Made by a program: the position numbers and the translations under genes. 64,000 nucleotides of DNA, taken from Massospora cicadina. Lineage: Eukaryota; Entomophthoromycota; Entomophthoromycetes; Entomophthorales; Entomophthoraceae. Below, one piece after another: positions 15,748-49,498 of the stretch (positions are counted from its first letter, which is position 1; every line of letters starts with the position of its first letter). The stretch is taken from positions 39,990 to 103,989 of the forward strand of contig JAKSZP010005580.1 of NCBI GenBank assembly GCA_022478985.1, read 5' to 3'. The notes under the pieces are model-generated. The model worked only from the letters and a program-made list of their open reading frames with translations. It had not been told where the DNA came from and searched no databases.

Positions 15748-15800
15748 TCAGTATGAGAACCTTTTTTTTTTTAGTACTAGATGGTCAGTATGAGAACCTT
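15748..15800 (-). mobile_element. Microinsertion 1: 21-bp A-tailed insert with 16-bp target duplication
   Basis: TCAGTATGAGAACCTT stands at 15748-15763 and again at 15785-15800. Between them is a T9 run followed by AGTACTAGATGG, in sense CCATCTAGTACT plus an A tail. In sense orientation the target begins AAGG after TT, the site type cut by endonucleases of L1-like retrotransposons. The duplication has no mismatch. Confidence 0.85.
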
Positions 15801-16330
15801 AACAATGTCATCCGCCAATTAAGAAATGGCATCTACTCTGTGGGTGCTCGCTTTAGCTGCTCTTGTGCCTCTTCCATTCCCTCTATCATGTGGGACCTTT
15901 ATGACTCAGCCCAGCTAATGGCAGGAGAACTTGCCCTGGGTCCTGAACACTACCTTCGCAACTTTGTTCACCCAGCTATTCATCACTTACTCCAACTAGT
16001 TGGGTTGCACCATCAAGAAGTCTCTTAACAACTGGGGCTTACTCAGGCCTTACACTCTCACATTGTCAAATTCTACAATGCAGTTTCCTTCTTTGTTCAT
16101 GACAAAAGCAAGGCCATTATTGATAACTGATGGTTGATCAATGAGGTTGAGATTAAATTATGGTGTTAGATAGCGGTATCTTTGGCTATATTGAGGACCA
16201 GATGCATCAGAACGTCCAACTTCTTGAGGCGACTTGGAATTGGTGCCTCCTCCAAGTCAAGGATCTGGTACAGGCTCTGCAACAACACTATCAGGAGCTG
16301 GCCTCCCACAACTACTCCTCTAGGACTGAA

Positions 16331-16429
16331 GGTCCTAAAGGGCCTAGGGGGCCTGAAGGCCCAAAAGGGTGTGAAGGACACAAGGGACTGGAGGGTCCCT
16401 GTGGACCACCAGGGCCCCCAGGTCCCTCA
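16331..16429 (+). other. Collagen-like Gly-X-Y segment in element D gag
   Basis: Eleven uninterrupted Gly-X-Y triplets occur ([33 protein letters not shown]) in the frame starting at ATG 16160. They follow a glutamine-rich helical stretch ([10 protein letters not shown]). The glycine codons are mixed (GGT, GGC, GGG, GGA), so this is not a simple nucleotide repeat. The triplets are preserved in an otherwise degraded gag. Confidence 0.75.
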
Positions 16430-16471
16430 GCACCCACCCGTGATGGCCCTGAAGACCCATGGTGGAAGGAT

Positions 16472-16524
16472 GTGATAACAGTCTTTTTTTTTAGTACTAG
16501 ATGGTCCCAAGTGATAACAGTCTT
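16472..16524 (-). mobile_element. Microinsertion 2: 25-bp A-tailed insert with 14-bp target duplication
   Basis: GTGATAACAGTCTT stands at 16472-16485 and again at 16511-16524. The insert is T7 plus AGTACTAGATGGTCCCAA, in sense TTGGGACCATCTAGTACT plus an A tail. It is the longest of the five and extends the shared sequence in the 5' direction. Confidence 0.85.
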
Positions 16525-17761
16525 GGCTGCCCTATGCAATCAAATTCAGTATGTAGCTCAGGGATGCAAACTATGAGTAAATGGAGTCCCCCTCAACCCT
16601 AGGATATCCATTGAGGCACCGTCAGACAAAATGGACAACTCAGTGCCTTCACCAAGATTACTGATACTTGCATCTCTCAGCTTGAACAAACTTGTCAAGG
16701 GTTTGAAACCCATTTGACCACCCTCAAGAGCCAACTTTGCCTTCAGGGCGCTGACATATAATCCCATAAAGGAGCAGGTTGCAAATATATATTCCGTTTC
16801 CTCTCTCAACCAAAATTGGGATGATATTCATTAGAACCTTGAGGGCCTACAGTAATGGCTGGACCAGCAGGCACCCCATGACTATGCGGCAACTGAGATC
16901 TTGGAGCCAGCGCCCATCCCTGGTGTTAACACCCTCTCCACTCCTCTTGTAACTAACTTTTAACTAGTTTCAAAGAAAGGTTCACCCCCAGCCAGGAGAG
17001 CATTGCCTCCTTCCTGTACGCATATGAGAGCTCTATGGAGGATGTCACTGACTAGCAGAAGGTAAAGCATATCCGTTCCTGCCTCAACAGCACAGTCTGG
17101 GAGAATATGACCCCCCATTTGAAGGAGTGCAACACCTGGGAACTGGTCCATACAGCCTTATTTCAAGAGTTTGGCAGCATGAAACCCTGGCCAACCAAAA
17201 ACAGGTGTTCATGAGTATCTGACTGAATAAAGGAGAACTCCCATGGAGTTTGCCAGCCATATTTATGACCAAGCACAACCCTTAGTCACTTCAAATCGTA
17301 TCACCCTGGATGATGTTAATACCACAGTCATTTCTTCATTGGGATCCTACAATGAAGTTCAAATGCATATGATTGGGCAGAAGAATGGGTTTACCTGTAT
17401 CTGGGAGAACAAAGAAGCACTTAACGAGATCCCTGCATCAACTCTAACTTAAGGCTACATTTGCAGGCCCCAATAACCAACCTAGAGTCCATGTGGTCAA
17501 AGACCATAAGAATCCTTGAACTCAATGCTTATTGTAATGGTTTCAGACTCAGTGCTAAGATCTGCTGGAAATGACTTTCCAAGGAGGCCGGAAAAGGGCT
17601 GCCAACATGAAGGGCGAGGCGCTCCATGATGACATCCATACCCAGCCTCAAGAATCCTCCATAACCTCTAATGAACTGGAGGTATCATACCTGGAAAAGA
17701 AGTTTCAGTATTTAATAATAAAGAAATAGATACTGCTTACTCTTCTTCCAATGACTCTCCC

Positions 17762-17995
17762 ATGTTCCTCATACTACCGCCCCAGTTTGAAAGTCTAGTT
17801 ACCTGGGGCATATTTCGAGTTCATAAAATTCCAGTCCTTGCCATAGTCAACAGTGACTCCCCCGTGAACGTCATATCATCCAAGTTAATAAAGCGCACTA
17901 AGATCGCTCCAGATTTGCCACACTATATGGTGTATGGCGCGGCTGGCTTACAGTTTACCCGATCTATAGCGGCTTATTCCTCTCTACTGTTATGA
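17762..17995 (+). pseudogene. Element D protease
   Basis: An open frame of 77 residues holds an aspartic-protease-like pattern. The active-site region reads IVNSDSPVNVISS, where the family normally has I-D-S/T-G-A-P-x-N/S-x-I. Both the aspartate and the glycine are altered, so this copy is inactive. A hydrophobic LLL end follows before the stop. It lies between gag and reverse transcriptase, as expected. Confidence 0.5.
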
Positions 17996-18601
17996 TTTAA
18001 AAGCTTGATGTAAGCACCCTCACTGTCATGCTAGATAGCCCTAGCTATGACCTGCTCCTCAGGACTCAGTTCCATTCAAGACTATTCAGCAATATCCATT
18101 ATGATGGCGTCCCTATCCCTACTAGGGCATTGAGTTTCTCTGATCCTCAAGACCTCTTGTGATTCTAAGACTTAGGTCAAAGACCAATCCTGTTTACTGG
18201 AGAGTGAAGGCTGAATTGATTGGCTTAAATATCACAATAGGGGCTCCTGAGTCCAATTGCCCCCTCCTGCTGTTTATGGGCAAGATGGCATACCTATCTA
18301 CTTACCTAGGGTGACCACAATACCTCCAAAGTCCCAAGCCATTGCTGACACCCTGGTCCATATAAAAGTCCCCTCAGGATGCCTAATGGAAATCTGAGGC
18401 ATAGACAACCTATCCACAAAAGAGGTACTAACCTGCCCGGGATCCTAGATCCAGCTTATGCCAGATCTATATCAGTGTTGTTGGCCAACTTTACTGACAA
18501 ACCCAAAGTAGTAGGTTAAGATAGTCCCACCGCCTGTCTGCCTTCTACCAGAGGGAGCTATTGCTGATGTCCAAAGCTTTGGGGACTTAAGGGATTTTGG
18601 C

Positions 18602-20140
18602 TTGGAGACACCTCCATTGATCATCCTGGTCAACACCAATATTGGCAAGGACCTCTCAGATGACCAACAACATAAGGTTCAAGTGTTGTTGGAGGAGTAT
18701 TCAGACCTATTTTCAGCCTTGACCTACGAATTTAGAAGAATGAATGGAGTCTTACATCATGTGGAAACTGGGGATGCTCCCCCTTTCCGGTCCCAATCTT
18801 ACTGAAAAAGCAAGGTTGAAGAGGCTCAGGTGACAGTGGAACTCAAACAACTACTCAATGCAGGACTCCTGGTACCATCGTGCAGCCCTTGGACCTCCCC
18901 TCTTCTGCTAGTTTGGAAGACGGACAGCAGCCACTGGGTGGTGATGGACTACTGGTGACTCAACTCCATCACAAAGAAGGACAGTTATCCTCTGCCCTGA
19001 ATTTATGGTTCCCTCCATATTCTTGCAGGATCTCAGTACTTTTCTGCCATGGACCTTGCTAGCAGATATTGGAAAGTTTAGCTTGCCCCTGAAGATTGAG
19101 CCAAGTGCGCTCTCATAGCCAACGAAGGACTATCTAAGCTCACAAGAATGCTTAGGGCCTTTGTAACGCCCCAGCCAATTTCCAACGCGCCACGGAAAGT
19201 ATCCTTGGGGACTTAAAGCTTTCATGCGTCCTCGTCTACCTAGATGACATTATTATATTCTCACAAGCATTTAATGGACTTTTAAAGCATCTTAGGGAAG
19301 GCTTCAATTGGCTCCAAAAGGCTTTTATAAAGCTTAAACCTTAAGTGTTCTTTCTTTTAAACAGAACTGGTGTTCATGGGACACAAAGTTTCCAAGATGG
19401 AATCCAGCCTATACTGGACAAGGTCGACGCCATAAAGAGAATGTCACGCCCACAAAGCTTAAGAGATATCTAGTTACTCCTAGGCATGGTGGGCTATTAT
19501 CATCACTTTATCCCACAGTTTGCCAACCTAGCCAAGCCACTATTCTACCTTTTACAGAAAATGTGCCATTTGAATAGCGGCCTGAACAAGAACAGGATTT
19601 TAATGCCTTGAAAACTGCTTTATGTACTAAACCCATTCTAGTTCACCCACGCTTCAACAAACCTCCTTGTTGTTTATGGATGCAAGTGATGTTGCCGTTG
19701 GATTATCCTAGCCCAACATGGTAACAACTAGTCAACCATCCCGTAGGCTATTTTAGTAAGACACTGAGTAAAGTTGAATGGAACTACAGCGTTACTGAGA
19801 CGGAGTGCTTGGCTGTCTTGCTAGCCATCAAACATTTCTGGCCTTATCTCTATAGTACTCACTTTACCATTGTTACAGACCACTCCTCAATCTGGTGGCT
19901 CCAGCAAATGAAGGACCCAGACGGCCAGTTAACCAGGTAGGCTTTATGACTGCAGAGCTATACTTTCACCATTGTCCATTGTGCAGGCGCGATTCACCAA
20001 AACGCCAATGGCCTCTCCAGGATGCTGGTGCTAGCCGCTTTGATCCCGTGGAGGAATGCCTATATGATCTAATAGGTCAACCTGAGCAATGGAAATTGGA
20101 AACTCCCAATCTCCAAGAGGAACTCCAAAGGATGACTTGA
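18602..20140 (+). pseudogene. Element D reverse transcriptase and RNase H
   Basis: It starts with the spacer and RT N-terminal part (LLEEYSDLFSALTYE, near 18690). The catalytic YLDD is at 19237-19248 within VYLDDIIIFS. The RNase H part is recognised by its FTIVTDHSS block near 19861-19887, followed by an arginine-containing stretch that pairs with it in the family. RT and RNase H copy the element RNA into DNA in the particle. Several stops and frameshifts are present, for example after 18803 and around 19330-19800. The YLDD core remains, but an active enzyme cannot be made. Confidence 0.75.
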
Positions 20141-20159
20141 GAAACTAAAATTAAGGATG

Positions 20160-21210
20160 GGCTATTCTACAAGAAAGCCAATAAGAAGTGGCTCCCTTAT
20201 GTCCACCCCTCTTCCCAAACTGATGTTATTTTAGAGGGCCATTCTACTTTGGGACATGGGGCGGTTAAGAAGACTTATGAATGGCTGAGGTTATGATGTT
20301 ACTTGGACCAAATTAATGGAAACCATCCAAGAGGCCTTGGAGGCATGTATGACTTGTCAATCCCAAGACTGAGCCAATCCTCAATTTTAACACTCAGTTG
20401 TCACCCCGACTGGGACCTTCAATGTCATTAGGATTGATGTGGTGGGCCATCTTACCACTGGGTTGCATGGCCATAGATATTATCCTAGCCGTGGACCACT
20501 TAACCAAGTGGGTTGAAGCGATTTTAGTCCCAGCTGCCACTGCCAAAGCCACAGCTCTCTTCCTTGTTTGATCCGTTTTCACCCAGCATGGGTGCCCCCA
20601 AACCTTACTTTCAGATAACGTGTTAAATTTCACCTCACAGGTGGTACAAGAACTTACCTTACTATTTGGCACTAAACAGAGTTTTCTGCCCCTTACTACC
20701 CATCAACCAATGGAGCAGTAGAACGCGCTAACAGAGCTCTCATTTCCATTTTATAAAAGTTGACCACCTCAGATCCTGCCCATTGGAACCACTACCTACC
20801 CAGCGCCTTGCTTACCTACAGGGTAAGCTACCACTGAGTCATTAAGATGTCCCCATTTCAAGCCCTATATAGGCGTGCGCCTCAGCTACCAAGCAGAATC
20901 CAGCCTTTGCTCGAGACCTCCACACCTGAGAGCTCTGAATTAACTATGAGGGCCTTACCCAAAGAAATTGTCCAGCTTCAAGCCCTAGCTACACAAGATA
21001 TTGGTATCACTGCAGGAAAAGAGACATCCCAATTTTATATTGAATGTCCCTCCTTACCAACTTTCCAAATAGGTGACCTTGTTCTCTTTTATCACCATCA
21101 ACCTGAAGACTGACAGAATAAGCTAGACGTCCTTTGGTTTGGACCCTATAAGGTCATTAATAAATTGAAGTCAGAGTACTCCATTGACAATGTCAACCAG
21201 GGGACCGTGG
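20160..21210 (+). pseudogene. Element D integrase
   Basis: Core blocks are visible in order: RIDVVGHL near 20431 (first Asp), LSDNVLNFTSQ near 20608 (second Asp) and NGAVERANRAL near 20712 (Glu), so the DDE triad is still encoded. A C-terminal part around 20847-21210 includes IGDLVLFYH and a GPYKVINK-like block. The zinc-binding N-terminal part (20160-20340) is damaged, but CMTCQSQD remains. Stops and frameshifts occur. No chromodomain is seen. Confidence 0.72.
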
Positions 21211-21275
21211 TCAATTAGGTGCATGGCTGGTTCCTTTGGCCTTATACCCCCTCCAAAAGGACCTTGAGGGGTCTT

Positions 21276-21684
21276 TATTGGGATTTGAGATAATAACAAA
21301 TTGAGTTCCCCACTTCTGAATTGAGCCGTAACAAATTGAGTCTCAAACCTATCCAAATGGAGATGACTTCAGGATTCTCATCCCCATTCCTGAGTCACTT
21401 GGGGCAGAGTTTCCACCAATACCATCATGGGGCGGCGAAGTACATTGAGGGTGCCAATTTGCAGTTAATCCAGAAGGCCATGAATTATCCTGAATGGATA
21501 GGGCCATGAAGTTCCTCAAGGAAACATGTCCCCATGCACCCTATAAATATCAACACTTTTAACCTAATAAAGCATTCAGTATAATCTCCATTCATTGGTT
21601 TCCTTTTTGACCCATTTTTACGAATTTTCAGCTTTAAGCCACCTTTGGACCTCTGCAACAGTCTAGAGGGATGTGATGCCAAAA
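21276..21684 (+). repeat. Element D 3' LTR
   Basis: Starts TATTGGGATTTGAG (G to A change in the second base of the usual TG). It aligns throughout with the 5' LTR, including CCCTATAAATATC and AATAAAGC. It is followed by the GATGT duplication. The polypurine tract before it (CCTTGAGGGGTC) is degraded. Confidence 0.85.
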
Positions 21685-22195: not shown

Positions 22196-23295
22196 TGTTA
22201 GGATTTTTGCCAACCGTACCAGATTCCTAGGTTATCTGCTAGTTCACTAGGGGATAGGTCCCACCAGCAAATAAATTGAATATTGGTTGATTTTGATTTT
22301 GGCTTAGTAATGTCCATGGGACTTTGGGTAATTCTCCAGGTTTGGATCAATTTGGGATTAATCTATGTGAATGCTTAAGATCTTGTTGGGCAGAGTTGCC
22401 AACAAAATCAAGGCATTTGATAGTTGATCGTTGAAAACTATTAGGTGCACCAATTAGATCAGTCAGGTTTCATCACAATTTGATTGAGAATTTAATCAGC
22501 AGTTGTGAGGTGAGTGATGCCATTTGCATCTAGCAAATCAACTAGTTGGTTTGTGACCTGCTATAAGGAGTAAAGAGTCCCATTACCTAAGCATGTCGCT
22601 AGCCAAATGTGGTTGGTTTGCTACTATTGAGTGGAAACGTTAGGGACACTTTTTGCTGGCTCTTTCCATTAGCAGGCCTCTGGGACGTTCAACGGAGTAA
22701 TTTTTTAGCCTAATGGAGAAGAATATTGCCAAAAGAGACTTTGCAAGAAATTTAATGGCAATGGATGCCATTTCATGGCTAAGGTGCTAACCAAGAGGTT
22801 GGGCACTGAATTCCCCTATAAATCTCAAAATTTTTTATTTATAAAGCAGATCAGATATTACCCTAAGTCTAATTTAATATCAATTTTATTCATCTCTGGT
22901 TAATTATCTTTGTAGTACAATAATTGCGGACTTTTTTGCGTGATAAATAGTAAGGATTGGATATCCCTAGAAGAGAATCAGATCTTTGACATAGATTTCC
23001 ACAGACTCAGCGTGATGATACTAAGGACTAGGAACCTCTGAATCTGAGAGTGGATTAAGCTTGTTGGGTAGAGAAGAAGTCCCTAATTTATAACATAATA
23101 AGTATTTTGTGGATCATTCCAAGCTTAAAGTTGGGCCACCAATCAACTGGATTTATCTATCCAACCATGAATAATAGTCTTCATAATTTTAGCGCTCATT
23201 TATCTAATACTGTCAAGCAACGCAAATCATGCAAATAACTGAACCTATACAGTTAACTTCTGGCAACAATCATTAACAAAGCCCATATTTTAACA
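22196..23295 (+). repeat. Element A 5' LTR
   Basis: Starts TGTTA and ends TAACA, a perfect 5-bp terminal inverted repeat. It aligns over its length with 39445-40545, e.g. the shared GATAAATAGTAAGGATTGGATATCCCTAGAAG-type block at 22942-22974 and 40187-40219. Cytosine/thymine and adenine/guanine differences predominate by eye. Confidence 0.85.
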
Positions 23296-23297
23296 AT

Positions 23298-23310
23298 TGA
23301 TGCTCACTAC
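23298..23310 (+). other. Element A primer-binding site (mutated)
   Basis: TGATGCTCACTAC three bases after the LTR differs from the TGGTGCTCACTAC of element D by one base. The three-base gap after the LTR matches element C. Confidence 0.6.
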
Positions 23311-23329
23311 AGCGGTTTTTGAGTAAGAT

Positions 23330-24830
23330 AAGTCAATCCATGATGACATATAAGGACAAATTAAGAAATCTATGGAAGGATTTGCAACTGTCAATAAGAT
23401 TGTCTTAAATTCAGACTATCATAGAGAATTTGCTGACATAGAGGAGAGAGTCAATGAGATCAAGGAAATAGTAGAAAAAGTTTACAATTTCAGAAATGAG
23501 TTACTTAGAAAAGTAACATCCCTGAAAAAGAAGGAGATTTGATCAGAGAAGTTTTATTACTTATGATAGAATGCAAAACATATTGTGTTTAATTGTGCTC
23601 ACTCAGCTCAGACATGGAATGTTTAATGAAATAAGTTGACAAACTGAAGAAGTAAAAATGTGAATGAAAACCCTGTGCAGTGACTGATGCCAAAGAAAAG
23701 ACCCCAAGAACTTTAGGTGGGAAGTCAGCAAATCCTAGATTTATGCCAACTGCATTCACTATCATTTTGGAGGTGAGCCCTGAGATTACTCCTATAGTCT
23801 TTTAAGTAGCCAAGCTGCAAGCAGCAGCTAGAGAAATCTAGAGGAATTCAAAGCCACGCCAAAAATAACCCATTTTTCACTGGGATAACATTCTTGCTTT
23901 TTCCCACCTGTTTGACATGACTATGTTTGGGTGTGGCAATAGACAAAAATCTTTGGCAGTCATGAAATTCTTGGATAATGACTGCCAAAACTTGGTGTTA
24001 CCTCATCTTGAGGGATAAAGCTGGTATTGTTCTGACGCCAAGGCTATAATTATGAAGGAGTTTGGAAGTCCAACCATATGTCAAAATGCAAGCAAGAATT
24101 TAAGGGGATCCAATTCCTGAAATATGAAACCTTAGAGAATTAGGCTGACCAATTCTACCAATATTCACATATTTAGGTCGGAGCAAAAGTTTTGACAATT
24201 TTGATGCTTGAATTGCATTACAAGAGGCTCTTTGGCCTTATTGTGTTTTACATCAAATGATGTATTCTGCGTTTATTTACTGAAAAAATAACGTGGCAAA
24301 TGGCGGATCACTTAAAGATGCTAGGAGCCACGTTTGGGTACCTAATTAAAGCTTCAAGCCTAGCTCAATCAGAAATCTGAACTTCACTAAATTTTTCAAA
24401 CCTGATAATGAATCTCCCAATCAAACAGTGCCAGGAAATAAACCTGAGGGGCTCAAATAAACAGCAAAGGCAACATGCGCTGTCTCCAGTGTGGGGGAAG
24501 GACCAATTCACTGCCCAGTGCTTCAGCAAGAAGCCTAAGGAGCAATTTAAAGTGGTTCAGGATAAGGAAGCAATATCCGCATAAAAGTCAGGAAAAGGGC
24601 CTGTGGCCTTGATGTGGAACCATCTAGAGCTGCGGTTAACCCTGTTATATTCAATATCATAAACAAGGGCATTGACATCAGCAATCTGTTTATTGATGAT
24701 GACACACCAGACCAGCTTTATCAAGTGGTTAACCTAGATGTCAATGCTGTAACCAGAGCCAGAGCAAAGGGGATTGATCCAAAATAATCAAGGAGGTTGC
24801 TTGTCCATATGCACACCAACTAGAAGACAA
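23330..24830 (+). pseudogene. Element A gag, broken
   Basis: Readable fragments include a charged, probably coiled-coil stretch (ADIEERVNEIKEIVEKVYNF, about 23433-23492). Near 24475-24540 there is a CCHC-like zinc knuckle split by a frameshift: CLQCG, then KDQFTAQCF, with Q where the histidine-containing position would be. The knuckle binds element RNA in the family. Order and content parallel gag of element C. Stops are frequent. Confidence 0.55.
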
Positions 24831-25089
24831 GATCCAGTCTGCTGAGAATCCGGATGAACTGGCTGATGTAATGGACCAGTTCTTTCCAGTAATGGACAAA
24901 AGAATTGGGCAATACCAACCAGGTAATAGTCCTCAAACTAGATAAAACCCCAGATAGTGCTCTGTAAGTCCGCATTCCACTATAATAAAGTTGAAGCCAT
25001 CCTTGGATAATGGTTAGGATAATACCTAATCCTAACAATGATCCTTGACTCCAGGTGAGGGCCAATAGAGAATCCCTTAAGTGACTAGT

Positions 25090-25880
25090 TTAGTGTCCTG
25101 GAGAAAGGCATTCATCATAGTATATTTCTCAATAAAATTAAAAATTAAAATAATTTTTATTAAGATGTTTATTGAGCCAACTGAGTAAGAACACAGAATT
25201 GAGGAATAAAATTATACTCAATTCTTTTTTTTTAGTACTAGATGGCTACTCAATTCTTTTTTATAGTATGCAAATAATAATTTTCTTAGACTTTTTTAAG
25301 TCTTATGAAATTATTAGTCTGAAATAATTGATAATTATGATTTTAAACATAGGATTAAATTATCAGATAATGGTTTTAAAATTATGATAATTATCAGTGA
25401 TTATTGACAATTGATAATCACTGTCAATAATCAAAATTTGGGAGGTCTATTTTTTAGACCTGATGATCTTGTTTTGATCAAATTAATTTTTGATAAAAAT
25501 TTGGGACCCCTTTTTATAGATTAATTTTGTCTGCAAAACAGATGAATTACTCCATTCGCTTGAAAATTACTCCATTTGGAACCCCTATATATAGGGGTTT
25601 TTTTGAGGCCCACATTTGGAGGAATCTGACATTATCGTCAGATTGGTTATTAATGTTTATCAGATTTCTTGAGCTCAGATTCATTGGATCCCTTGAGGTG
25701 GTACAAGGGCCTTCATTTAATATTGAATTTTGCCCCAATTTGGTGATTTTTCTCTTATTATTATCATTAAAATTATTGTTTTGCTTGTTATTATTAATTT
25801 TAATAATAACAATGTGATGGTCAGGAATATCCTGTACTGTCACAGCTGAGGTTAGGATTAGATGAACCAAACCTGTCAAT
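25090..25880. repeat. AT-rich, hairpin-rich block inside element A, probably an inserted LTR
   Basis: It interrupts the gag-to-protease stretch of A. It holds the 20-bp perfect palindrome AACCCCTATATATAGGGGTT (25580-25599), a hairpin AATCTGAC/GTCAGATT (25622-25643), and two overlapping alternative hairpins at 25395-25432 (arms CAGTGATTAT/ATAATCACTG and GATTATTGACA/TGTCAATAATC). A TATA-containing palindrome and a polyadenylation-like tail fit an LTR promoter, but no second copy or clean ends were found. Confidence 0.35.
25215..25262 (-). mobile_element. Microinsertion 3: A-tailed insert with 10-16 bp target duplication
   Basis: TACTCAATTC followed by T residues stands on both sides (25215-25230 and 25247-25262). 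Between them is AGTACTAGATGGC, preceded by T, in sense GCCATCTAGTACT plus an A tail. The T runs make the exact duplication length ambiguous (10 bp certain, 16 bp if T residues are counted). Confidence 0.8.
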
Positions 25881-25899
25881 TGATCTAAACGTGATTAAG

Positions 25900-26360
25900 G
25901 AATCCTTTCCTGATTTGTCAGAACAAATAATTTACACCCTCAATTTGGCAAGTAACGCCGCTATACACTAAGTAAACACTAATTTGCAATATTCAAAGTG
26001 TATTTATACTGATTTCTTAGTCGATCAAGTATGGGTTTGGGAAATAATTGACAGTGGGGCGCCAATCAATATTGTCTCAACCAAGTTGGTGAAGAAAAAT
26101 GAGAAACTTGACCAATTTGGAACGCAAGAAAGAATATGGGGCTGTCAGGCCTGATTTGACCATCTCATGTGGAGCATATAGTGCATTACCACTTAGATTT
26201 GGATCCTGGTGGTATCTGCCCCAGATATAGTTTTGGCCAACAAAAACTACGCCATTCTAATTTGGACCAAGTTTTTAAGGAAGTAAAGAGTTAAATGTAA
26301 CTTCAAGGACAGTGCATTGACCATATTGGGTCAAATGCTGCCTCTGGTATATCATAGAGA
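25900..26360 (+). pseudogene. Element A protease
   Basis: WEIIDSGAPINIVSTKLV is encoded around 26034-26090, with the aspartic-protease active site DSGA at 26050-26061 intact. A second conserved hydrophobic block with ILVVSAPDIVLANKNYAIL-like reading follows near 26195-26260, after frame changes. The enzyme would cut Gag-Pol in the particle. A stop and frameshift at about 26100-26170 break it. Confidence 0.65.
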
Positions 26361-27330
26361 TGGGGAAACTATGCTTATCAGGAGAAAAAATTTCACTAAT
26401 CTGATCTAAAACAATTGCATTATCCTAATCTGCTACCAATTGGTTGGATAAAAGTGAAGAGAAATGATAAATAAAAAAGTGGAAAATTGGGGATTTCTGT
26501 TACCAACCAAAAAGTTAAGTATCATACTTCTGGGATTGCAGATTATAGTCAATACAGGATCAACTTTGGAAACACCTGATCAACTCTATGGAGAGGTTGG
26601 TAACCCATGGAAGAAGTCCAGAGTAGAGCCATGGGTGGCGCCTGGAATAGTGATGCCAGGCCATGGAGAAATTTGATTCTCCTGGCGAATTTTAGTGGAA
26701 AACTGATGAAGATTGAAATAATTCAGTTGTCATGTTTGCCCATCTTATCCTGACAGCAGAATTGCGAAGAATCCATGGCTTTGGGACCCTCACTGTGATG
26801 GGATTGCTGGCAGGGGTTTCTGAGAATAACAAATTGTTGGTCAACTAAGAGCAACTCACTTGTAAGTCCAGGGGATCTCCCCTCCACTTGAACTGTGTGG
26901 CGTTCTCTTTCCCATCTAAGAAGAGTCTGAGAAGGCCAGCTGCCCCTCTCATCTCCCAGGGAGACATCGCCTATATGGTGGACGAGCAGTGGGTAACAGC
27001 TTACCCTTTGAGGACCCTGCCACCTATCCCTGTATTAACTTCAGATGAATTGATACTAAAAATAAGGGAATTCAAATTGAGCTATTGGAGAGTTGGCATT
27101 TTCAAGGGATAAAAGGTCCAAAGGAAGTTGATGGCAATAAGCATTCAGCATAAATGCCCAAGGGCACCAAATTATTGGAAACAAGTCCTGTTACATGTAC
27201 ACTTTTGATGAAAAAGCGTCTGACCTCAAATTCTTTGGTGAAACACACAGATTGCATTAGGTTATCAATGATATTGCTTCCAGTTCAAAACCTTCCCCAA
27301 AAACATTAAATTCCTCATTAAATTAATTTT
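26360..27330 (+). pseudogene. Element A protease-to-RT spacer
   Basis: Open stretches at 26464-26676 and 26888-27112 continue in the pol direction; the spacer ends in a P-x-x-PGIVMPGHGEI-like block near 26640-26675. Element C shows a comparable PGIIIPGHQEI-like block near 50240-50270, so this is a conserved part of pol of this lineage whose function I do not know. Confidence 0.5.
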
Positions 27331-27339
27331 TCTTGGTCA

Positions 27340-28030
27340 AATGGACGCCAAAGCAACCAAGTGCAGGTGGGTTGGGCGCCCCAAACCCATTCCCAACCTC
27401 TTGGGACCGCCTCTACTTGAGGCGGCCTTGGGAGGTTCTTATTGCCCATCAGGCAAGATGCCATCACGCTAATTGTCAGAACTGCAGTTAAACTGAAATT
27501 TGGGTGTCTGTGGACAAATTGATAGCAACTTGATCCACACCTGATACTTTCAAAGTCAGTTCAAAACAAGTTTGTTTCCCCCTAACTTGAAGCTCACCAG
27601 GTTGGGTCAAACCTTGAGGGACACAATCCCACGCTAACCTAAGCTATTTCCCAAAAGCATTCACCTATTTAAGCAGTCGTAAACAACTAAAGAAATTAAT
27701 AGTTAATTCTCTTATTTCAAATTTAATAAACATTTTCCCACACTCAGATTTAATTAATTAGTTTGAATTGTTATTTGCTGAACCCCTGTGACATCTTTAA
27801 TGTGGCCCCGCGGCCCACGTTTGAATGGGTTGTCTAAGTCATATTATTAACTTTGATCCCCACCATAGTCACTTGGGCCTATTGTGTCAAGGCCTTTATG
27901 GATTTTTCCCAGTCTCACAGCTCCCTATGCCAAGGCCCATTGGCCCTGAGCTGCAACAGTTTGGTTTCTTTCTGGGTTGTTTTTTACATTTGCAGCCTGG
28001 TGGCACTCCATGGTTACTTTTCTTCCAGCA
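27340..28030. repeat. GC-richer LTR-like insertion in element A
   Basis: It differs in base composition from flanking A. It contains GGGCGCCCC, a GGACCGCCTCTACTTGAGGCGGCC-like inverted repeat (about 27407-27432), CTATTTAAGCAG as a TATA region near 27666, and AATAAACATTTTCC as a polyadenylation region. Reverse transcriptase of A should begin soon after the spacer but appears only at 34690, so this block plus element B is foreign. Element B landed in it. Neither its ends nor a second copy could be fixed. Confidence 0.4.
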
Positions 28031-28035
28031 TATAT

Positions 28036-28585
28036 TGTTATAATTTTGGGCGGTATTGTTGAGATCCGCTGTGAGGGTCACATAGGTCAAACCCACTGAG
28101 CAACAGGAAGATGATGTGAGGATCGTTGGTCCTTCAAATAGACGGAAAATATAAGAAAATAGGAGCAATCGCCATGACAACACTTTTATTTATTTTTATA
28201 AATACAGTGACTATTCGCTGTTCCACTCTCTCTACTACTAACTAACTAACCTTTCAAATGCCCATCATGCTTATATACCAGCGACTTTGGATGATACCGC
28301 TCTCATAGCTTAAGCTATTCTACTCCACCAATTCTCCTTGTTTTTGAATTGTTATTCTTAAGCTCTCTATTGACCTAATTCAAGATGATCTAATTTGTTT
28401 TATCAAATGTCAACATTGCCTTATCACCTTATTTTGGAGGTGATACAATAAAAATCCCATTATAATACAATATTGCCTCATCTTGAGGCACTCAAATAAT
28501 TGAAAATAATAACATGGTCAGAAATTCTTCCCAATCAGCCATAGCTATTTCAGGCTTATCATCCAGTCATATCAGAATTGTGACA
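28036..28585 (-). repeat. Element B 3' LTR
   Basis: Aligns with 34011-34557 throughout, e.g. GGAGCAATC and the CTTATCACCTTATTT block. A polypurine tract AAGAGGGGTAA (minus strand, 28586-28596) abuts it. Confidence 0.9.
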
Positions 28586-29012
28586 TTACCCCTCTTGACT
28601 GGATGATATGGCTCCTATTGCTTATTTGGCCAGAGGAACATTGCGTGTGCTCAGTTAATGATCCAACCACTTGTGGGGTCCTTGATGGCATAGGCGTTGA
28701 CCTCAGTTTTCTCTATAACTTTGAATGGACTAATCCAAGTACTGACTAACTTGTGTTTCCGCCTGAACCCATGTTGATCATGGAAGAGAACCATATCACC
28801 TTCTTTGAACTGAGCCAAACCACTAAGCCGTACCTGATTGGCAGTCTGATTTTTTATCTCCTTGGCTATGTTGAAGGAATATGCTTTGGTTTACAATTTG
28901 ATCAAAGTGTTCACAAGGTTAGTCAAATAGTGGTGGGGTTCCATTCCACTGGTGTCTTCTATGCATGAATAAAGTAATGCCAGAAGAGCCAGGTGTTGCC
29001 CATATAGTAGTT

Positions 29013-29561: not shown

Positions 29562-29599
29562 GCTTTCTCAATAGTGCCAAGGGTGCAACAACTCCATTT

Positions 29600-30350: not shown

Positions 30351-30352
30351 AG

Positions 30353-32471: not shown

Positions 32472-32479
32472 CTCTACTC

Positions 32480-33991: not shown

Positions 33992-34009
33992 CCCCTGTTG
34001 TGAATACCA
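33992..34009 (-). other. Element B primer-binding site
   Basis: The minus strand reads TGGTATTCACAACAGGGG one base after the LTR. It agrees with TGGTGCTCACTACAGG of element D at most positions. Confidence 0.65.
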
Positions 34010-34010
34010 C

Positions 34011-34557: not shown

Positions 34558-34689
34558 TATATAAACATAATTTGAGCAACAATGCCCCAGGCATTTTGGC
34601 TTGCATTTTGGGTGCTTTTGCATCCCAACATGCAGGCCACTCTAAACTCTATCTGCCGCTCCCCCTAACATCACTAATCTGACAGAAAG

Positions 34690-35960: not shown

Positions 35961-36159
35961 CTATCAAGGTTACCAATGGTCCAAGTGGTACACCATCAGG
36001 CTGATGAACTATTACAGAGGATGGTTGGTGGAGAAGTCAGGAACAAACCCCAAGAAATCTAGGGTACGTTTCAAAAAGCAATGGAAAACACTAATACCAA
36101 GGATGGACAAGTATCTAAAATGACATATAGAAAAGACTGATATTTTCCAAAAACCATCT

Positions 36160-37190: not shown

Positions 37191-37199
37191 ATCCAAGTA

Positions 37200-38397
37200 A
37201 AAAAGAATGAGAGTGTTCCCAAGGGACCGCTAAACCATTAAAGATGGTTATGTCCTGAAAATTTTTGATTAAGTCCTAAAAAGGACTGCAAACCAAAAAT
37301 ATATGGTTAGGTCTTAAAAATAAGACCTCTGAACCATGAAAACTGGTAGTTCAGGGTATACCTAGGAACTAGTTTGGGGGAATAATAGAAGAAAAGATGG
37401 ACAGCTGAACCAAGTAAAGGTTATGTCCCATGGTTTTTTAAATTTTTTATTTGAGGTGGGCTGACTTGGGAACAATATCAAACTGATGAAGGACAGTGAA
37501 GAAAATGGGAGTCACACCTATAAATAATAATAAGAAAAAACAATAACAAATTGATAAAATATGGAAAAAAGAAAAGAAAAAAGAAAAAAGAATAGCACAA
37601 AAAGAAGTGTATATTTTATAATTTTCTTTTTTTTATTCTCAATTCAGGGATGATTTCGTTTATGCATCTCTTAGGGGAGGGAGAATGTATGAAAGTAGGT
37701 ATAAAATCCCATTGAAATCTATTTGAGATCAAACACTAGTAAGGGCTAGACCCAATTGAAGCCAAGTTTGTTAAGCAGAAGCTGAGACATGAGAGAATGT
37801 GATATGGGAAGTGAAAATCAAAGTGTTGGTACTAGCCAAATGCAATATTCCAGATTGGAGAGAAAAACAGCAGAAAGGAAAAGGGAGTCAGTTAATAACC
37901 CTGAGCAATCCCAATATGGCCTGGAGACAGAGTATTAGTCTTGAGTTCCTGTCAACAGGCTTCATTAAGAACGTTGGGAATGTGGGCCAGCATGGCCAAG
38001 GGATACTGGATGGAGATTGCCAAATCATGACCCCAATCAGAGCCATTAGAGGGAGACAACAGTGCGAAGCACCAGAAATAAGGTAGTTGTGCAACAAGTA
38101 AATGACATCCTGAAGGAGATGACTATAAGCTTCTTGGAATTAGAAACATAACAAACAATGGAAGTTAGGGGAGGCCGGAAGCTTTGTGGTCCAACTCTAA
38201 AGAACTTAACCTACAAAACAAAGAGCGTAGGCTGAAGCATCTCAATCCAAGATGCTTGAGAGATCAGAGGTGTATAGAGCCTCAGCAAGGACTATGGTTA
38301 CCCTGTTCCTTATATCTCAATTAGAGAGCTCAAATTGTTCTTAATTTCCAATAGTTAATTTGGATGAAAGTACTGCTGGTTTGTAATATTGGCTCAT
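37200..38397. other. Element A region between integrase and antisense frame
   Basis: Starts with a short repeated phrase (GTCCTGAAAATTTTTGATTAAGTCCTAAAAAGGACTG and a near copy about 50 bp on), then A-rich text. At 37665-37690 a purine run (TAGGGGAGGGAGAATG) resembles a polypurine tract and could be an internal or second one. The 95-residue frame at 37799-38086 is unrecognised. Confidence 0.35.
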
Positions 38398-38866
38398 TCA
38401 AAAAAGGAACTCTGGAAGAAAATTAACTCCGGCACAAAACTGCTGACTGATATTGGACAGCATTGCTTCAATAGGCTTGATGATTATAATTGAATAATCC
38501 GCAAAAGGAGCTGAATCTAACAAAGTGTCAAAGTCCAATTTAAGAACTAATGGAAGTGGGTGAATCAGCCACAATTTGTTTGAGAAGGTTGCTATTCTGG
38601 TGGGACCATCTAGTACTAAAAAAAAGGTTGCTATTCTGGTTTCATTGGGATCATATACCATTTCTGGTAGTTTAGCAGAAGGACTACCTACATGCACTTG
38701 ACTTTGATTATGGGTCCTAGAGGGACCATAAAATAGATTTCTTTTAGCAGTACAACTCATTAATTGGAAGAGGCGGACATCTTCAGAAGAAAAATTGTCC
38801 AGATATTGCTGATACAGGGAGTTGATGAATTTAACATATTTTCAGGATGAGCTGGATGAGCTGGGT
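38398..38866 (-). pseudogene. Element A antisense reading frame
   Basis: It lies on the opposite strand from gag-pol, between integrase and the 3' LTR. It begins with a serine-rich segment (about 38845-38866), has a stop at about 38842, then reads openly to 38398. Its start, Y-x-x-F-I-x-S-L-x-x-x-x-Y-x-x-F, lines up with Y-x-x-F-V-x-S-L-x-x-x-x-W-x-x-F at the start of the antisense frame of element C, and a C-terminal Leu/Phe-rich block also lines up. Element A and C sense genes are diverged, so a shared antisense protein is suggested. Function is unknown. Microinsertion 4 lies inside it and adds 39 nt, keeping the frame open. Confidence 0.55.
38585..38640 (+). mobile_element. Microinsertion 4: 22-bp A-tailed insert with 17-bp target duplication
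   Basis: AAGGTTGCTATTCTGGT stands at 38585-38601 and 38624-38640. The insert is GGGACCATCTAGTACT plus the A tail (eight A residues, two shared with the target). The duplication is perfect. Confidence 0.87.
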
Positions 38867-39444
38867 GAGGTTGAACTTTTTATAAAATAGTCAACATTAT
38901 CCAAATTGGTGAATATTAAGCTCAAATTTACTCTAATTTTGGCACAATTATTTTCTAATTTATGAAATAAGCTTTTCAAAAAAGAGAAAATTGTAATAAA
39001 ACTATGAGCAAAGATTTATTAAGAGAAAATAACCAGAGCATTTATAATTAATCATTCTTATTTTTGCCATGAGAAAGACATTGACAGTAGTAACCCCCTG
39101 CTAAGGGTGATGAGGGAGATCAATGAATCAAGGACGCTGAACCAAGATCCTGAAGATGACAAAAAGTCATATGCCCTGACCAGTGGAAAACTGGCTTTTT
39201 GGGACTAGTATCAGAACAAACAAACATACTAAGCTGGCATGGCAGTGGGTTGTGAGGACCGTGGTATGAGGAGGCGACAGTTAGGAAAAAGGAAGAGAAC
39301 CGCAGGCCAAAGGTTGTCATGAGCAGCGTTGAGTGCATAACAGCTGTGCGCCACTGGAAACTAAGAAGTAATTGACCTGGCCTAAGGCAGCATTCTCCTG
39401 TCCCAATCTTATTCTCACTGGAAATCTAGGCAAGAGGGAGGATA

Positions 39445-40545
39445 TGTTGAGATTTTTGCCCATCTTTCCAGCATCATAGTTATCTACTGGTTTGCTAAGG
39501 GATAAGTCTCACTAGCAAATGAATCAGATTTGGTTTATTTCGATTTTGGCTTAATAATGTCCTCAGGTTTTTGGGTAATTCGCCAGGTTCAGATCCATAA
39601 AGATGATTTGTGTGAATGCTTAGTATCTTGTCAGGCAGAGTTGCTGACAAAATCAAAGCATCTGATAGTTGATCGTTGATTAACTATTAGTGCACCAATT
39701 GAGATTGGACAGGTTTTATCAACGACTGATTCTGAATTCAATCAGCTATTGTGAGGCGAGTGATGACGCCTGCAACTAGAAAATCAATCATTTGGTTTGT
39801 GATCTGCTATAATGGGTTTAAGAGTCCCATCAACTAAGCAGGTCGCTAGCTATATGTGGTTGATTTGCTTGGATAAAGAGGAAAATGTTAGGGACACGTT
39901 TTATGAATCTTTCTGTTTTAGGTCTCAAGGATGTTTAATGATTAAATCCTTAGCACAATATAAAAAAATATTGCTAAAAAGAGACTTTGTAGAAAAATCC
40001 ATGGGCAATGGCTGCCGTTTTATGGCTGAGGTGCTACCCAAAAAGTTGGGTACTAATTTCCCCTATATATCTCAAGTTTTTATCTATAAAGAAGATCAGA
40101 TATTACCCTATATCTAATTTAATAGCAAATTTTATTCATCTTTAGTTAATTATTGTTGTAGTACAATAATTGCAGACTTTTTTGCGTGATAAATAGTAAG
40201 GATTGGATATCCCTAGAAGAGAATCAGATCTTTGACATAGATCTCCACAAACTCAGCGTGATGATACTAAGGACTGGGAACCTCTGAATCTGAGAGTAGA
40301 TTAAGTTTAGCTGGGGTAGGGAAGAAGTCCCTAAATGTCAACATAATCAGTAATTTTTGTGGATCATTTCAAGTTTAGCATTGGACCGCTATTCAACTGG
40401 ATTTATTTATTTATCTAGAGATAATGCTCTTTATACTATTATCGCCATATATTTAACACTATCAAGCAACGCAAATCATGCACATAACTGAATCTGTGCA
40501 ATTAACTTCTGACAACGATTGTCTAAAAAGCTCAGATTTTAAAGA
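39445..40545 (+). repeat. Element A 3' LTR
   Basis: Starts TGTTGAG, preceded by a polypurine tract. It aligns with 22196-23295 to its end near TTTAAAGA, where the 5' copy has TTTAACA. It is part of the same repeat pair although 17 kb away. Confidence 0.82.
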
Positions 40546-45801: not shown

Positions 45802-46930
45802 TGTTTTTTTTGATGGTTTTTATAAGTATATACCCTTTAAAACCATCAAACCCAATAGATTACTCTCATTGATAAATCCTTTGATCCTTCCCAATTTATC
45901 TGCATAGTATGATAAATTAGATTCACCTCATAACCACTTTAATTGCGTCTAAGTAACCCAACTATTGTAGCTAATAATAGCTATGATATAATAACATTAT
46001 CGCTGATTATAGGTCCACTTGGGTGCAAAGTGGTCTCATGGCATTAACTAAATTGAACCTCTAAATTAGTGCACTAATACTAATGCACTAAGATGGAATT
46101 TTGGGTTCAATTAATGAAATTGATTTACTAAGCACTTAAACATAGATGTCCCAATAAAGGGCATACTTAGTGCTATGAAAGACCTGCTGAGTCCCAAGTT
46201 AGGGGTGCAACATCTTTATTGTTCATATATATTATTATCCTCATTTAATGTTTTTTGTTGCGTTATGACGTAGCTCTAATCGGGAAGATTTTGGTGTTGA
46301 GTTTGCAACCAATATAGTCCCAATTATGAGAGTAAAATTGCCTTCAATCAGGTTGAAACAATTGTTATTTTTAGTCAATCTATGGGCCAAATTGACTTGG
46401 GGATATTTCATGATCATTGCCATGATCAGCAGAGGACTGGCATAATATGAATGAACTCAACTAATAGATGAGTTTGGCCTATAGATGCCCAAGAGGTATA
46501 TAATACCAGCGCCTGGCCAAATAATAAAACATCATTTATCTATTGATTATTAATAACTACTGTACTTTTGTTTACTTTTTGTTGTCCATCTGTCATCTAT
46601 CTGATATTTGTTTCTGCTGCCTTACATCTATAATAGATAGTTGTGTGTTCTTATACTTCCTAAAGAGAAGTACTCATTATACCTGCTGGAAAAGTAGTCC
46701 CATTTATAAAGGAATTCTTTCCTAATTTTTTCTAAAGACGAAGGTCTTGTAATTGTTGTTGCCAGTAGAATTAAGAACGGTGAGCGTACCAGAGTTACTT
46801 AACTATTATTGAGGATTATCTGAGAATCTTACTACTGATTACAAGCAGGAGTTTCATTAAAAAGTGAGTATAGATCCTCAATTTCCTTGTTAAGTCATTA
46901 TAGCTTGCACCATCAGCTAAAAACTTAACA
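45802..46930 (+). repeat. Element C 5' LTR
   Basis: Starts TGTTTTTTTTGATGG, ends TTAACA. AGGTATATAATACC (46494-46507) is the TATA region and AATAAAACATC (46521-46531) a polyadenylation region. It aligns closely with 54384-55515. Confidence 0.9.
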
Positions 46931-46933
46931 TTT

Positions 46934-46949
46934 TGGTGCTCACTCAAAA
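46934..46949 (+). other. Element C primer-binding site
   Basis: TGGTGCTCACTCAAAA lies three bases after the LTR. The first 11 bases are the same as in element D. Confidence 0.72.
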
Positions 46950-46973
46950 ATACAAATACTTTAATATAAACAT

Positions 46974-48290
46974 GGACAAAAGCTTTTTATAATTTTCCTG
47001 AAAGTACAGCAACAATGAGATGGAAACATGTGATGTTCAGTTTATTGAACACCTTATATCAAGTCATCATGACAAAGAGTAGGGGAATGATTACTCATTA
47101 GAACTAATATTGACTGAAACAGGTCCAACTTTACCCTCTAATCCATCTGAGTTTACCCAGGCAATATCAAGGAAATGTAGGAAACCTTGTTTCTAGGAAC
47201 CATGTTGGTTCTTCAAAAATTGACCCAATCTTTGGTCTGTTTTACTATATGAAGGACCAAGCCCTGAAAAACGAGATTTATCAAAAGTACAGAGAAGCCA
47301 CCATGGCTTTGGTCCAAAGACTTCAAGAGAATCAGATCAACACATATGAATATTTGGTCAACTTTGTACAGCCATCTATCAAACATTCTCAACGCATTTT
47401 TGCATGCAAAAATCTTGAGCTTTCCCACCTCCACCGTGTCCAAGATGAGGAACGGTCAGACCAAGCTTTCTTGTTAGAGAAGCTGGATAAATGCCTTGTA
47501 GAAGTGCGAAAAGCACTTGTTTAAAACACTGGAGCCTCAGCAGAAGCTCATGGTCATATTGACGAGTTGGTAGCTCAACTTAATGAAGGTGTCCCAAAAA
47601 TAGCAACACAAGTGTTAAATAATTATGGATTCTCAAGTCAGTGAAACGGGATATTACCAACTACTGCATCAGACTTGAGAAGCAGTACCATTAAGTAGCA
47701 TATAATACAGAAAATCTCCTACAACAGGGTCATGATTCAAGGGAAACCCTCCAAGAGTTGGAAGAAAGATATGTCAGATTGGAAGACTATATCCGGACTA
47801 AATTTGCAGCTACTTAAATGGATATTGAGGCTTTATCTCAGTTACCTCCCGTTACAGTAGACCAACCAGACAATTCAGATATTAAGGCTGAATTAGCAAT
47901 GTATGGTCAACTATTTCCGAACTCCATACTTCTAGTACCATCTTAGCTAATGAGAAAAATAATATAGAGAGATGACTATCTCTTGCTAACACTAGAATGA
48001 AGAGAATGTCAGAAGAAATGAAAGCACTTTCAGCACAACAGGCATTAGTTGAAGCAGATCTATCTCAAGTTAACAAGAAAGAGAACCTTAAGATTAATAG
48101 TTGCAAGTGTGCGACCAATCTTGGGGGAGGGGAGGATGAAGATGCGGTCCCAAAGACATGCAAAGTTGTGCTTCAGAAGCCTGTCAATCCTGATTTCAGA
48201 AAACAGAATCAAGCAATTATGAAGCTTATCATGAAACAGATGAAGTCTATGGAACTGATGTATCAAATACACGAAATATTCTACATGTAC
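46974..48290 (+). pseudogene. Element C gag, N-terminal coiled-coil part
   Basis: The first ATG after the primer site is at 46974. Readable parts at 47249-47524 and 47997-48293 are rich in Glu, Gln, Lys and Leu in heptad-like spacing, e.g. LVQRLQENQINTYEYLVNF and EERSDQAFLLEKLDKCLVEV, and suggest long coiled coils, as in the N termini of gag of A and B. Several stops interrupt it. Confidence 0.55.
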
Positions 48291-48383
48291 TGACCTCTAT
48301 GCCCACACCAAGCCACTCACAACATCCTATTATGCCCAAAGGTTCTCCAAGTCGGTCAAACTTGAGGAGAGAAACCGCCTCTC

Positions 48384-49498
48384 TTGTTAGGGACTCAGGA
48401 AGAGATGAATACAAAACTTTTAAATTTGCTTAGATTTGATAAAGAAGGCAATATATACTCCTTCCTAAAGCCTTTTGAGAAGGCCATGAGAGGAGCGTCT
48501 GATCATGCAAAAGGTATAGCCCTCATCAATTGTTTGGATTCTCACAGCGTAGACCTCAAAACGCCCTATTTAGGGGAAGATTGGTCTTACGATGAGGCCA
48601 AACAGGCTGTTATTAAGGAATTTGGTTTGCCTAAAAAGCTGTCAATCCAAAAGATAGAGCTTTTGAATATTGAGTTCAGACCCAATGAGTCCATAAAAGA
48701 CTTTGTCGACTGAATTTATCATGAAGCCCAAGTGCTCCTCAGATCAAATATTATGACCAAATTTAATGAAAAATTGCCATGGAACATGTCGTGCAGCCTT
48801 ATGATAATTTGGAACAAGTAATGATTCCAGATTTCAATCATGATACAGAAACAAATAGACTTGTGGACTCTTATGCCGGTGTGCAAGAAGTTTTGAGGCG
48901 CCAAATTGGCCAAACAATCAGCAGCAGGTGCATCCTCAACAGAAAAATAGTAGTACAATTCATGATCAAGAGTCTAGTACTAAAAAAAATTCATGATCAA
49001 GAGAGAACTGGGAATTCTAATGACCAGAGATCCAACTTTACCAAACCTAATGCCATCAATTACCATTGTTGTGGTAGAAAAGGGAACTTTGTCAATAAGT
49101 GTTATACCGAATGGATGCAAAATCAGGAGTTAGTGTGGCATATAAAGTTGAAAAGGACTCATAATCTGGAAAAGGGCAGGTGGAGTAGAGGCGGAATGCT
49201 CTACTACCACCCATCATACCAAAACATTCTTCCCAATCCTAGAAAGCTTTTTGTGTCAGATTCAATTAATGAAGATTCCTTGCATCGTATTATGGCCAAC
49301 AATGTACACATGGTCACAAAAAAATTCCAAAAAGGCCAAAAATCAGGTGAATCTTCAGAAGAAGCCCAAATAGAGGTGGCTAAACCATATGTTAAGCAAA
49401 TTATGGACTACGGCCTTGATCCTCATACTACTTGCTCCTGTGATCTGCCCTCTTTAAAAGATGTACAGGTCACAATACCCATACAGACTCTAGCGTAA
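48384..49498 (+). pseudogene. Element C gag, capsid and zinc-knuckle part
   Basis: 48384-48713 holds a Ty3-type capsid signature: FLKPFEKAMRG, WSYDEAKQAVIKEFG and EFRPNESIKDFVD, with a following YHEAQVLL after a stop. Then come a glutamine-rich linker and a CCHC zinc knuckle near 49063-49100 (CCGRKGNFVNKC, with N in place of H). Microinsertion 5 sits in the linker and adds 31 nt, shifting the frame; the reading on the two sides fits one frame when the insert is ignored. The end (to 49498) has a PHTTCSCDLPSL segment of unknown role. Confidence 0.72.
48957..49003 (+). mobile_element. Microinsertion 5: 15-bp A-tailed insert with 16-bp target duplication
   Basis: AATTCATGATCAAGAG stands at 48957-48972 and 48988-49003. 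The insert is TCTAGTACT plus A6, with two further A residues shared with the target. It is the shortest of the five, with only nine bases besides the A tail. Duplication perfect. Confidence 0.87.

What the first reader, a model, noticed from the sequence alone, without database searches (positions are those of the whole stretch)
15748..49003. Five 15-25 bp A-tailed insertions with long perfect target duplications: a micro-retroinsertion family
At 15764, 16486, 25231, 38602 and 48973 the same core, CTAGTACT plus an A tail, is inserted between duplications of 14-17 bp (16, 14, 10-16, 17 and 16). Insert 5' ends differ (TTGGGACC.., GGGACC.., CCATC.. twice, TC..) while the 3' end is constant. That is the pattern of target-primed reverse transcription with 5' truncation, reduced to near the limit. 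Finding only stubs, five in 64 kb and no longer copy, is unusual. It may mean a source RNA that is itself tiny, or a reverse transcriptase that falls off almost at once. I know of no described element consisting only of such stubs.
Basis: partly seen in the sequence, partly recalled or inferred. Interest (0 to 1): 0.88.

Follow-up and report, generated by a model that had tools for sequence, protein, structure and literature searches.

The report
Jumping gene leaving mostly tiny stubs
A retrotransposon of a cicada-infecting fungus copies itself almost all-or-nothing: about nine in ten of its sampled insertions stop within roughly the first 47 bases and leave only tiny scars, while most of the rest run to several thousand bases.

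Summary
All five sites carry CTAGTACT plus an A tail between perfect 14-17-bp target duplications. The window is Massospora cicadina. The assembly holds 37,792 exact CTAGTACTAAAAAA sites (reversed control 47) and 31,059 CCATCTAGTACTAAAAAA. The source is not tiny: it is a ~6.45-kb L1-like LINE ("family A": endonuclease, reverse transcriptase) whose last bases are the stub sequence.

The insert-length distribution is unusual. Of 100 sampled copies, 90 are stubs: 63 of 8-24 nt, 4 of 25-35, 22 of 36-46, one about 47. Ten are long, seven of them full length and one of 513 nt. A 22-mer 481 nt from the 3' end occurs 2,812 times, one at 4.4 kb 2,019 times, one at the 5' end 1,733 times. A related LINE with nearly the same 3' end ("family B") shows no clear stub below 41 nt in 60 copies (one uncertain).

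My model: the enzyme stalls opening a 3'-terminal stem-loop, then at AAUAAA. Family B folds alike without short stubs, so the loop alone is insufficient.

The parts
15764..15784 (-). stub 1: CCATCTAGTACT + A tail (21 nt); TSD copies 15748-15763 and 15785-15800 (16 bp)
   Evidence: 100% match to the 3' end of LINE family A
16486..16510 (-). stub 2: TTGGGACCATCTAGTACT + A tail (25 nt); TSD copies 16472-16485 and 16511-16524 (14 bp)
25230..25246 (-). stub 3: G + CCATCTAGTACT + A tail (17 nt); TSD copies 25215-25229 and 25247-25261 (15 bp, 16 with one more tail A)
38602..38623 (+). stub 4: GGGACCATCTAGTACT + A tail (22 nt); TSD copies 38585-38601 and 38624-38640 (17 bp)
48973..48987 (+). stub 5: TCTAGTACT + A tail (15 nt); TSD copies 48957-48972 and 48988-49003 (16 bp); lies inside a gag-like open frame 48770-49498 (gag-like by eye; no Pfam match)
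   Evidence: too short to appear in the BLAST; uninterrupted paralogous sites elsewhere in the genome

Best explanation
The five inserts are extreme 5'-truncated copies of one young L1-like LINE (family A, ~6.45 kb) of the fungus Massospora cicadina, laid down by target-primed reverse transcription: the endonuclease nicks an A/T-rich site, the target end primes on the poly(A) tail, and the second nick leaves a duplication, mostly of 13-18 bp. Copying is close to two-state: about nine in ten first strands end within the first ~47 template nucleotides and are still resolved into a clean insertion with a TSD, whereas most that pass this zone run on for thousands of bases. Shown: source LINE, TSDs, length classes, contrast with related family B. 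Inferred: the cause of the stops. I think it most likely (about 0.45 for this step alone) that family A's reverse transcriptase unwinds poorly the 3'-terminal stem-loop (3' arm and loop at nt 8-24 from the end, where 63 of 90 sampled stubs end; 5' arm at nt 25-36, where few end) and meets a second block at or next to AAUAAA (seen in families A and B). After that the drop-off rate is more than a thousandfold lower.
For: Full-length LINE ending in the stub sequence. Domains PF03372 and PF00078 above, zf-RVT just below the curated cut-off. Best solved relatives LINE-1 ORF2p. Length classes and drop-off rates per nt (7.7% at nt 12-24, 1.1% at 25-35, 9.1% at 36-46, about 0.002-0.005% beyond). Genome-wide counts 37,792 / 31,059 / 2,812 / 2,019 / 1,733. 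TSDs. Uninterrupted targets. Stem-loop fold. Family B, 0 clear short stubs of 60.
Against: The stem-loop is no more stable than dinucleotide shuffles (z -0.31). A sequence variant within family A (...CCCCCTCAGG...) folds only weakly (-4.2 kcal/mol), yet copies bearing it are among the 36-46-nt class (e.g. L046, L083, L084). Family B folds a similar loop at -15.7 kcal/mol (a variant -11.2 with other basal pairs) against -8.9 and -10.8 for A, yet has no clear 13-40-nt stub in 60 copies, so the loop cannot be the whole cause. AAUAAA and distance from the 3' end cannot be separated (43 vs 44 nt). Full-length copies may be under-represented in a wtdbg2 nanopore assembly, which would inflate the stub share but not explain the lack of intermediates.
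Confidence: 0.82

Rival explanations
1. The templates, not the enzyme, are short: 3'-terminal fragments of LINE RNA (decay or processing products with a poly(A) tail) are copied to their 5' ends in trans by the LINE machinery. The sharp 43-45-nt class would be an RNA cut at AAUAAA.
For: The 36-46-nt class has a nearly constant 5' end in family A (AATAA|ACATCG) and in family B (AATAAA|GATGCG). For an R2 protein, RNA template instability correlated with more 5'-truncated insertions (PMC11331408, passages).
Against: The 8-24-nt stubs have many different 5' ends and have no clear counterpart in family B; general RNA decay should affect both families.
Confidence: 0.25
2. A host process (repair or restriction) cuts short or resolves the first-strand intermediate early; family A was active when this defence acted, family B earlier.
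For: Family specificity and apparent age difference: sampled long A copies are about 91-99% alike piece by piece, B copies 65-94%.
Against: A time-limited cut-off would not obviously follow the arms of the stem-loop, nor spare nearly all template beyond nt 47.
Confidence: 0.2
3. An independent micro-SINE or tiny RNA gene that uses LINE enzymes.
For: No long copy was found in the window.
Against: Full-length LINEs end in the identical sequence; the stubs' 5' ends vary down to 8 nt, which no gene could encode.
Confidence: 0.02
4. Sequencing or assembly artefact (adapter or homopolymer debris).
For: Nanopore-based assembly (PMC9584336).
Against: TSDs in 85 of 90 vs 3 of 90 re-paired controls; uninterrupted paralogous targets for one stub; same 3' end on 6.45-kb LINEs.
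Confidence: 0.01

Closest known systems
Human LINE-1 (L1) and its 5'-truncated copies
   Same: APE-type endonuclease, L1-like RT (best solved match), poly(A) tail, TSDs, 5' truncation; most human L1s are 5'-truncated and about a third of human-specific ones are full length (PMC4859970, passages).
   Different: In family A 90 of 100 copies end within about 47 nt and only one of 100 (513 nt) is a copy measured between 50 nt and 4.7 kb. I know of no L1 with a majority of sub-50-nt insertions (recalled, not a test).
Stringent-type LINEs with a 3'-tail stem-loop bound by ORF2 (ZfL2-1, ZfL2-2; UnaL2)
   Same: A short stem-loop close to the RNA 3' end; binding by the cognate ORF2 is shown for ZfL2 (PMC4176376, abstract). 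A 3'UTR stem-loop is also proposed for human L1 and Alu (PMC5135761, abstract).
   Different: Family A carries a poly(A) tail; whether its ORF2 needs or binds the loop is untested. The loop is discussed here as a barrier, not as a recognition site.
SINEs, including those of fungi (e.g. Aspergillus fumigatus, PMC5063351, listing only)
   Same: Short, dispersed, TSD-flanked, LINE-mobilised (recalled).
   Different: SINEs have a fixed 5' end and an internal promoter (recalled); the stubs have variable 5' ends and about 8-47 nt.

Membership tests
L1-like (APE endonuclease) LINE | apurinic-type endonuclease domain in ORF2 | tested here: met
   PF03372 E 3.1e-10, above cut-off, on L032:5770-6684; PDB L1 endonuclease matches
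L1-like (APE endonuclease) LINE | non-LTR reverse transcriptase | tested here: met
   PF00078 E 3.6e-33 on L034:6519-8225; best solved hits 8c8j and LINE-1 ORF2p entries (E 1.6e-37 to 8.6e-37), then R2 (2.4e-28)
L1-like (APE endonuclease) LINE | ORF1 upstream of ORF2 | tested here: inconclusive
   880-aa open frame upstream in L035 but no Pfam match
L1-like (APE endonuclease) LINE | TSDs and 3' poly(A) | tested here: met
   of five long copies, three have exact TSDs (L033 13 bp, L034 15, L035 17); L032 and L036 only imperfect ones by eye; stubs 85 of 90
L1-like (APE endonuclease) LINE | endonuclease site of the TT/AAAA type | tested here: inconclusive
   TSDs begin AA (85 and 80 of 90 at the first two positions), but TSD starts are partly forced towards A by the tail
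L1-like (APE endonuclease) LINE | phylogenetic placement inside the L1 clade | not tested
   no tree built; the listed protein neighbours are mixed, fungi, plants and metagenomes
SINE | fixed 5' end and internal Pol III promoter | tested here: not met
   variable 5' ends, about 8-47 nt; no room for a promoter. Promoter motifs themselves were not scanned
stringent-type LINE | ORF2 requires the cognate 3' stem-loop | not testable with these tools
   only a predicted fold

The most novel reading that the evidence does not exclude
Family A carries out target-primed reverse transcription with a built-in abort/escape checkpoint, like abortive initiation and promoter escape by RNA polymerase: the first ~47 nt (terminal stem-loop, then AAUAAA) must be passed or the insertion is closed as a stub, and passing it switches the enzyme into a processive state that usually copies several kb. 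Family B lacks the first, stem-loop stage, so the checkpoint strength is an evolved property of the element or of its host at that time.
Probability: 0.3. Interest if true: 0.82.

Novelty: new variant of a known kind. Interest (0 to 1): 0.68.

Why it matters
The cause of LINE 5' truncation is not settled (a 2016 review, PMC4859970, passages), and insertions under about 50 nt are, to my knowledge, below what usual repeat annotation detects (recalled; no RepeatMasker run was made). Here tens of thousands of stub sites, TSD-flanked in nearly all sampled cases, lie beside roughly 2,000-2,800 long copies and a related family with scattered truncation. They give a natural record of where first-strand synthesis stops. 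This makes testable whether RNA structure, the enzyme or the host sets truncation, and suggests that most integration events of a LINE can go unseen. TSD-flanked stubs could also serve as insertion markers.

Tried and rejected
Considered and dropped: 5S rRNA antisense origin (resemblance from memory only); marsupial or plant origin (first impressions, overturned); SINE. No tRNA, tmRNA or Rfam match at gathering score was found in the window. The IMG/VR scan gave one exact hit, inside a phage-like gene (L001) with no TSD seen by eye, i.e. chance. Paper searches gave nothing that I could see on sub-50-nt LINE copies (listings; most listed papers were not opened). The library lacks most subscription journals, so I do not claim it is absent from print. 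The share of long copies that are about 50-1100 nt does not differ significantly between A (1 of 10) and B (17 of 52): p 0.26. One search gave 0.16 with B miscounted as 18, and one search gave 0.004-0.04 on an earlier, partly guessed count from 20 copies; these are superseded. Genome-wide counting of copies of at least 20 nt was not achieved. No uninterrupted site was sought for the other four stubs.

Rows and limits: family A sample = all 100 places listed, contigs C1-C8 only, conditioned on exact CCATCTAGTACT plus at least 6 A. Five stubs (L027, L040, L049, L050, L059) have no clear TSD by score; their lengths come from LINE matching. Family B sample = 60 of the 100 places listed; 40 were not fetched. 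Of the eight B copies counted as 43-45 nt, two are uncertain: L156 (alignment reaches 98 nt, imperfect TSD at 44) and L163 (alignment reaches only 27 nt, no TSD, placed by eye). If L163 were a short stub the contrast would be 1 of 60 and p 1.4e-18. L149 was misplaced in alignment A1 and is ignored there. Of the 18 places's list of 100 that lack CCAT, 14 are stubs (13 events, since L115 and L116 share flanks; L118 has an imperfect TSD; stubs of 8-9 nt cannot be assigned to A or B) and 4 are family B.
Full report
What is there. The five inserts were re-derived from the sequence. Each is a 3'-anchored piece of TTGGGACCATCTAGTACT plus an A tail between perfect duplications of 14-17 bp. The 14-mer CTAGTACTAAAAAA occurs 5 times in the window and 0 times in 100 shuffles. 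A scan for A-tailed insertions of 12-8000 nt with exact TSDs listed these five with 14-17-bp TSDs and five weaker candidates with 11-14 bp.

Where it is. An open frame at 1467-2789 (-) is 99% identical to a Massospora cicadina protein (P0001). Whole-genome search places the window at G000:C4855:39990-103989 of a 1.47-Gb assembly. The published assembly is 1.488 Gb, nanopore plus Illumina, 92% transposable elements (PMC9584336, first of three parts of the text read). A comparative paper states that M. cicadina uniquely shows an expansion of LINE elements after the Ty3 expansion (PMC11105155, passages). That fits a young LINE.

The source. Fetching 30 genome-wide copies showed that five run on upstream into shared sequence 95-99% alike. 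Stretches of 9.8 kb gave elements of about 6.45 kb with a long first open frame (no Pfam match), endonuclease, reverse transcriptase and a zinc-finger match just below cut-off. The best solved relatives are LINE-1 ORF2p. Exact TSDs were found in three of five long copies (L033 13 bp, L034 15, L035 17); the other two have only imperfect ones by eye. Four of the window's stubs match the LINE 3' end at 100% by BLAST; the fifth (9 nt plus tail) is too short for BLAST but is identical by eye. No other part of this LINE was found in the window. Call it family A.

How long the copies are. All 100 places listed were fetched and measured. Ten are long. Seven start within about 8 nt of the LINE 5' end as seen in L034 (L002, L004, L013, L060, L081, L086, L098). 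One begins about 240 nt in (L014), one is at least about 4.7 kb and leaves the fetched stretch (L067), and one is about 513 nt (L006). Ninety are stubs: 63 of 8-24 nt, 4 of 25-35 nt, 22 of 36-46 nt and one (L059) of about 47 nt with the same 5' boundary as the last class. TSDs score at least 9 in 85 of 90 stubs against 3 of 90 in re-paired controls; 68 of 90 are perfect and at least 11 bp. Another 18 places lacking CCAT (one search list) gave 14 stubs of 8-13 nt and 4 copies of a related family.

Genome-wide counts agree. CTAGTACTAAAAAA: 37,792 (control 47; this includes family B). CCATCTAGTACTAAAAAA: 31,059 (control 0). A 22-mer 481 nt from the 3' end, carried by 10 of 10 long sample copies: 2,812. 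One 4.4 kb from the 3' end, carried by 9 of 9 that reach it: 2,019. One at the 5' end, carried by 6 of 7 full-length copies: 1,733 (carriage). Of the first 40 listed places of the -481 marker, 29 have the 4.4-kb marker at the right distance. So long copies are 7-9% of all, and about 72% of those that show the -481 marker also show the 4.4-kb marker; some of the rest will be mutation or contig ends.

Drop-off per template nucleotide in the 100-copy sample: 60 events in 783 nt at risk for nt 12-24 (7.7%), 4 in 375 for nt 25-35 (1.1%), 22 in 242 for nt 36-46 (9.1%), and 1-3 in 56,050 beyond. The 3' end of the RNA can fold into a stem-loop with its 3' arm at nt 8-20, loop at 21-24 and 5' arm at 25-36. 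A reverse transcriptase must open base pairs only while it crosses the 3' arm, so stops at nt 8-24 and few at 25-36 are what stalling in this loop predicts. The fold is not more stable than shuffles (z -0.31), and one variant of family A folds only weakly, so this rests on stop positions, not on energy. The second class ends at the poly(A) signal: AATAA|ACATCG.

The related family B ends in ...CCCCCTTTTGGGTTGGGCACCACTAGTACT and occurs 1,148 times with 13 nt and 6 A matched. Of its 100 listed copies I examined 60: no clear stub of 13-40 nt; 8 of 43-45 nt (L156 and L163 uncertain) that also begin right after AATAAA; 13 of 111-283 nt; and 39 reaching at least 337 nt (counts). Short stubs: 67 of 100 in A against 0 of 60 in B, Fisher p 2.8e-20, or 1.4e-18 if L163 is counted as short. 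Family B folds the same kind of loop; by eye two base pairs of the basal stem are changed on both sides, one evolutionary event and therefore weak support. The loop is thus not sufficient; family A's enzyme, or the host at the time, must differ. The AAUAAA-adjacent stop is shared.

Target. For the stub at 48973, six other places in the genome carry the uninterrupted target with 2-3 mismatches (exact search 0).

Limits. The sample comes from the largest contigs. Collapse of near-identical 6.4-kb copies could lower their count, but it should not remove 50-500-nt copies. TSD starts are biased towards A by the tail. The reading of the stops is inference; RNA fragments as templates or a host process are live rivals.

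Noticed in passing
L131-L190 and L002-L106, 43-45 nt from the 3' end: In both LINE families a sharp class of truncated copies begins at or next to AATAAA, 43-44 nt from the 3' end, although the sequence just downstream differs between the families.
   Followed up: partly
window 15104-21668, 22361-40542, 28044-34558, 45839-55513: Four pairs of direct repeats 6.0-17.2 kb apart (74-96% alike) look like nested LTR-retrotransposon ends; all five stubs lie inside such intervals, with RT and integrase-like pieces at 29-31 kb.
   Followed up: no
window 6548-6838 and 8752-9043: Inverted repeats of 127 and 167 nt, 85-87% complementary, about 1.9-2.2 kb apart; possibly a DNA transposon.
   Followed up: no
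L115 and L116 (G000:C1:177895 and 184308): The same 8-nt stub with identical flanks occurs twice, 6.4 kb apart in the same orientation; perhaps a stub inside an LTR that was copied with it.
   Followed up: no
G000 family A copies: A tails are short and narrow: 74 of 100 sampled copies have 7 or 8 A (copies were selected for at least 6).
   Followed up: no
window 1467-2789 (-): 5'-nucleotidase C-terminal domain gene (PF02872), the only host gene I recognised; its listed relatives include Entomophthora and other early-diverging fungi.
   Followed up: no
family B, L133, L135, L144, L183: Four of 60 sampled family-B copies end at 252-258 nt from the 3' end, which may be another preferred stop.
   Followed up: no
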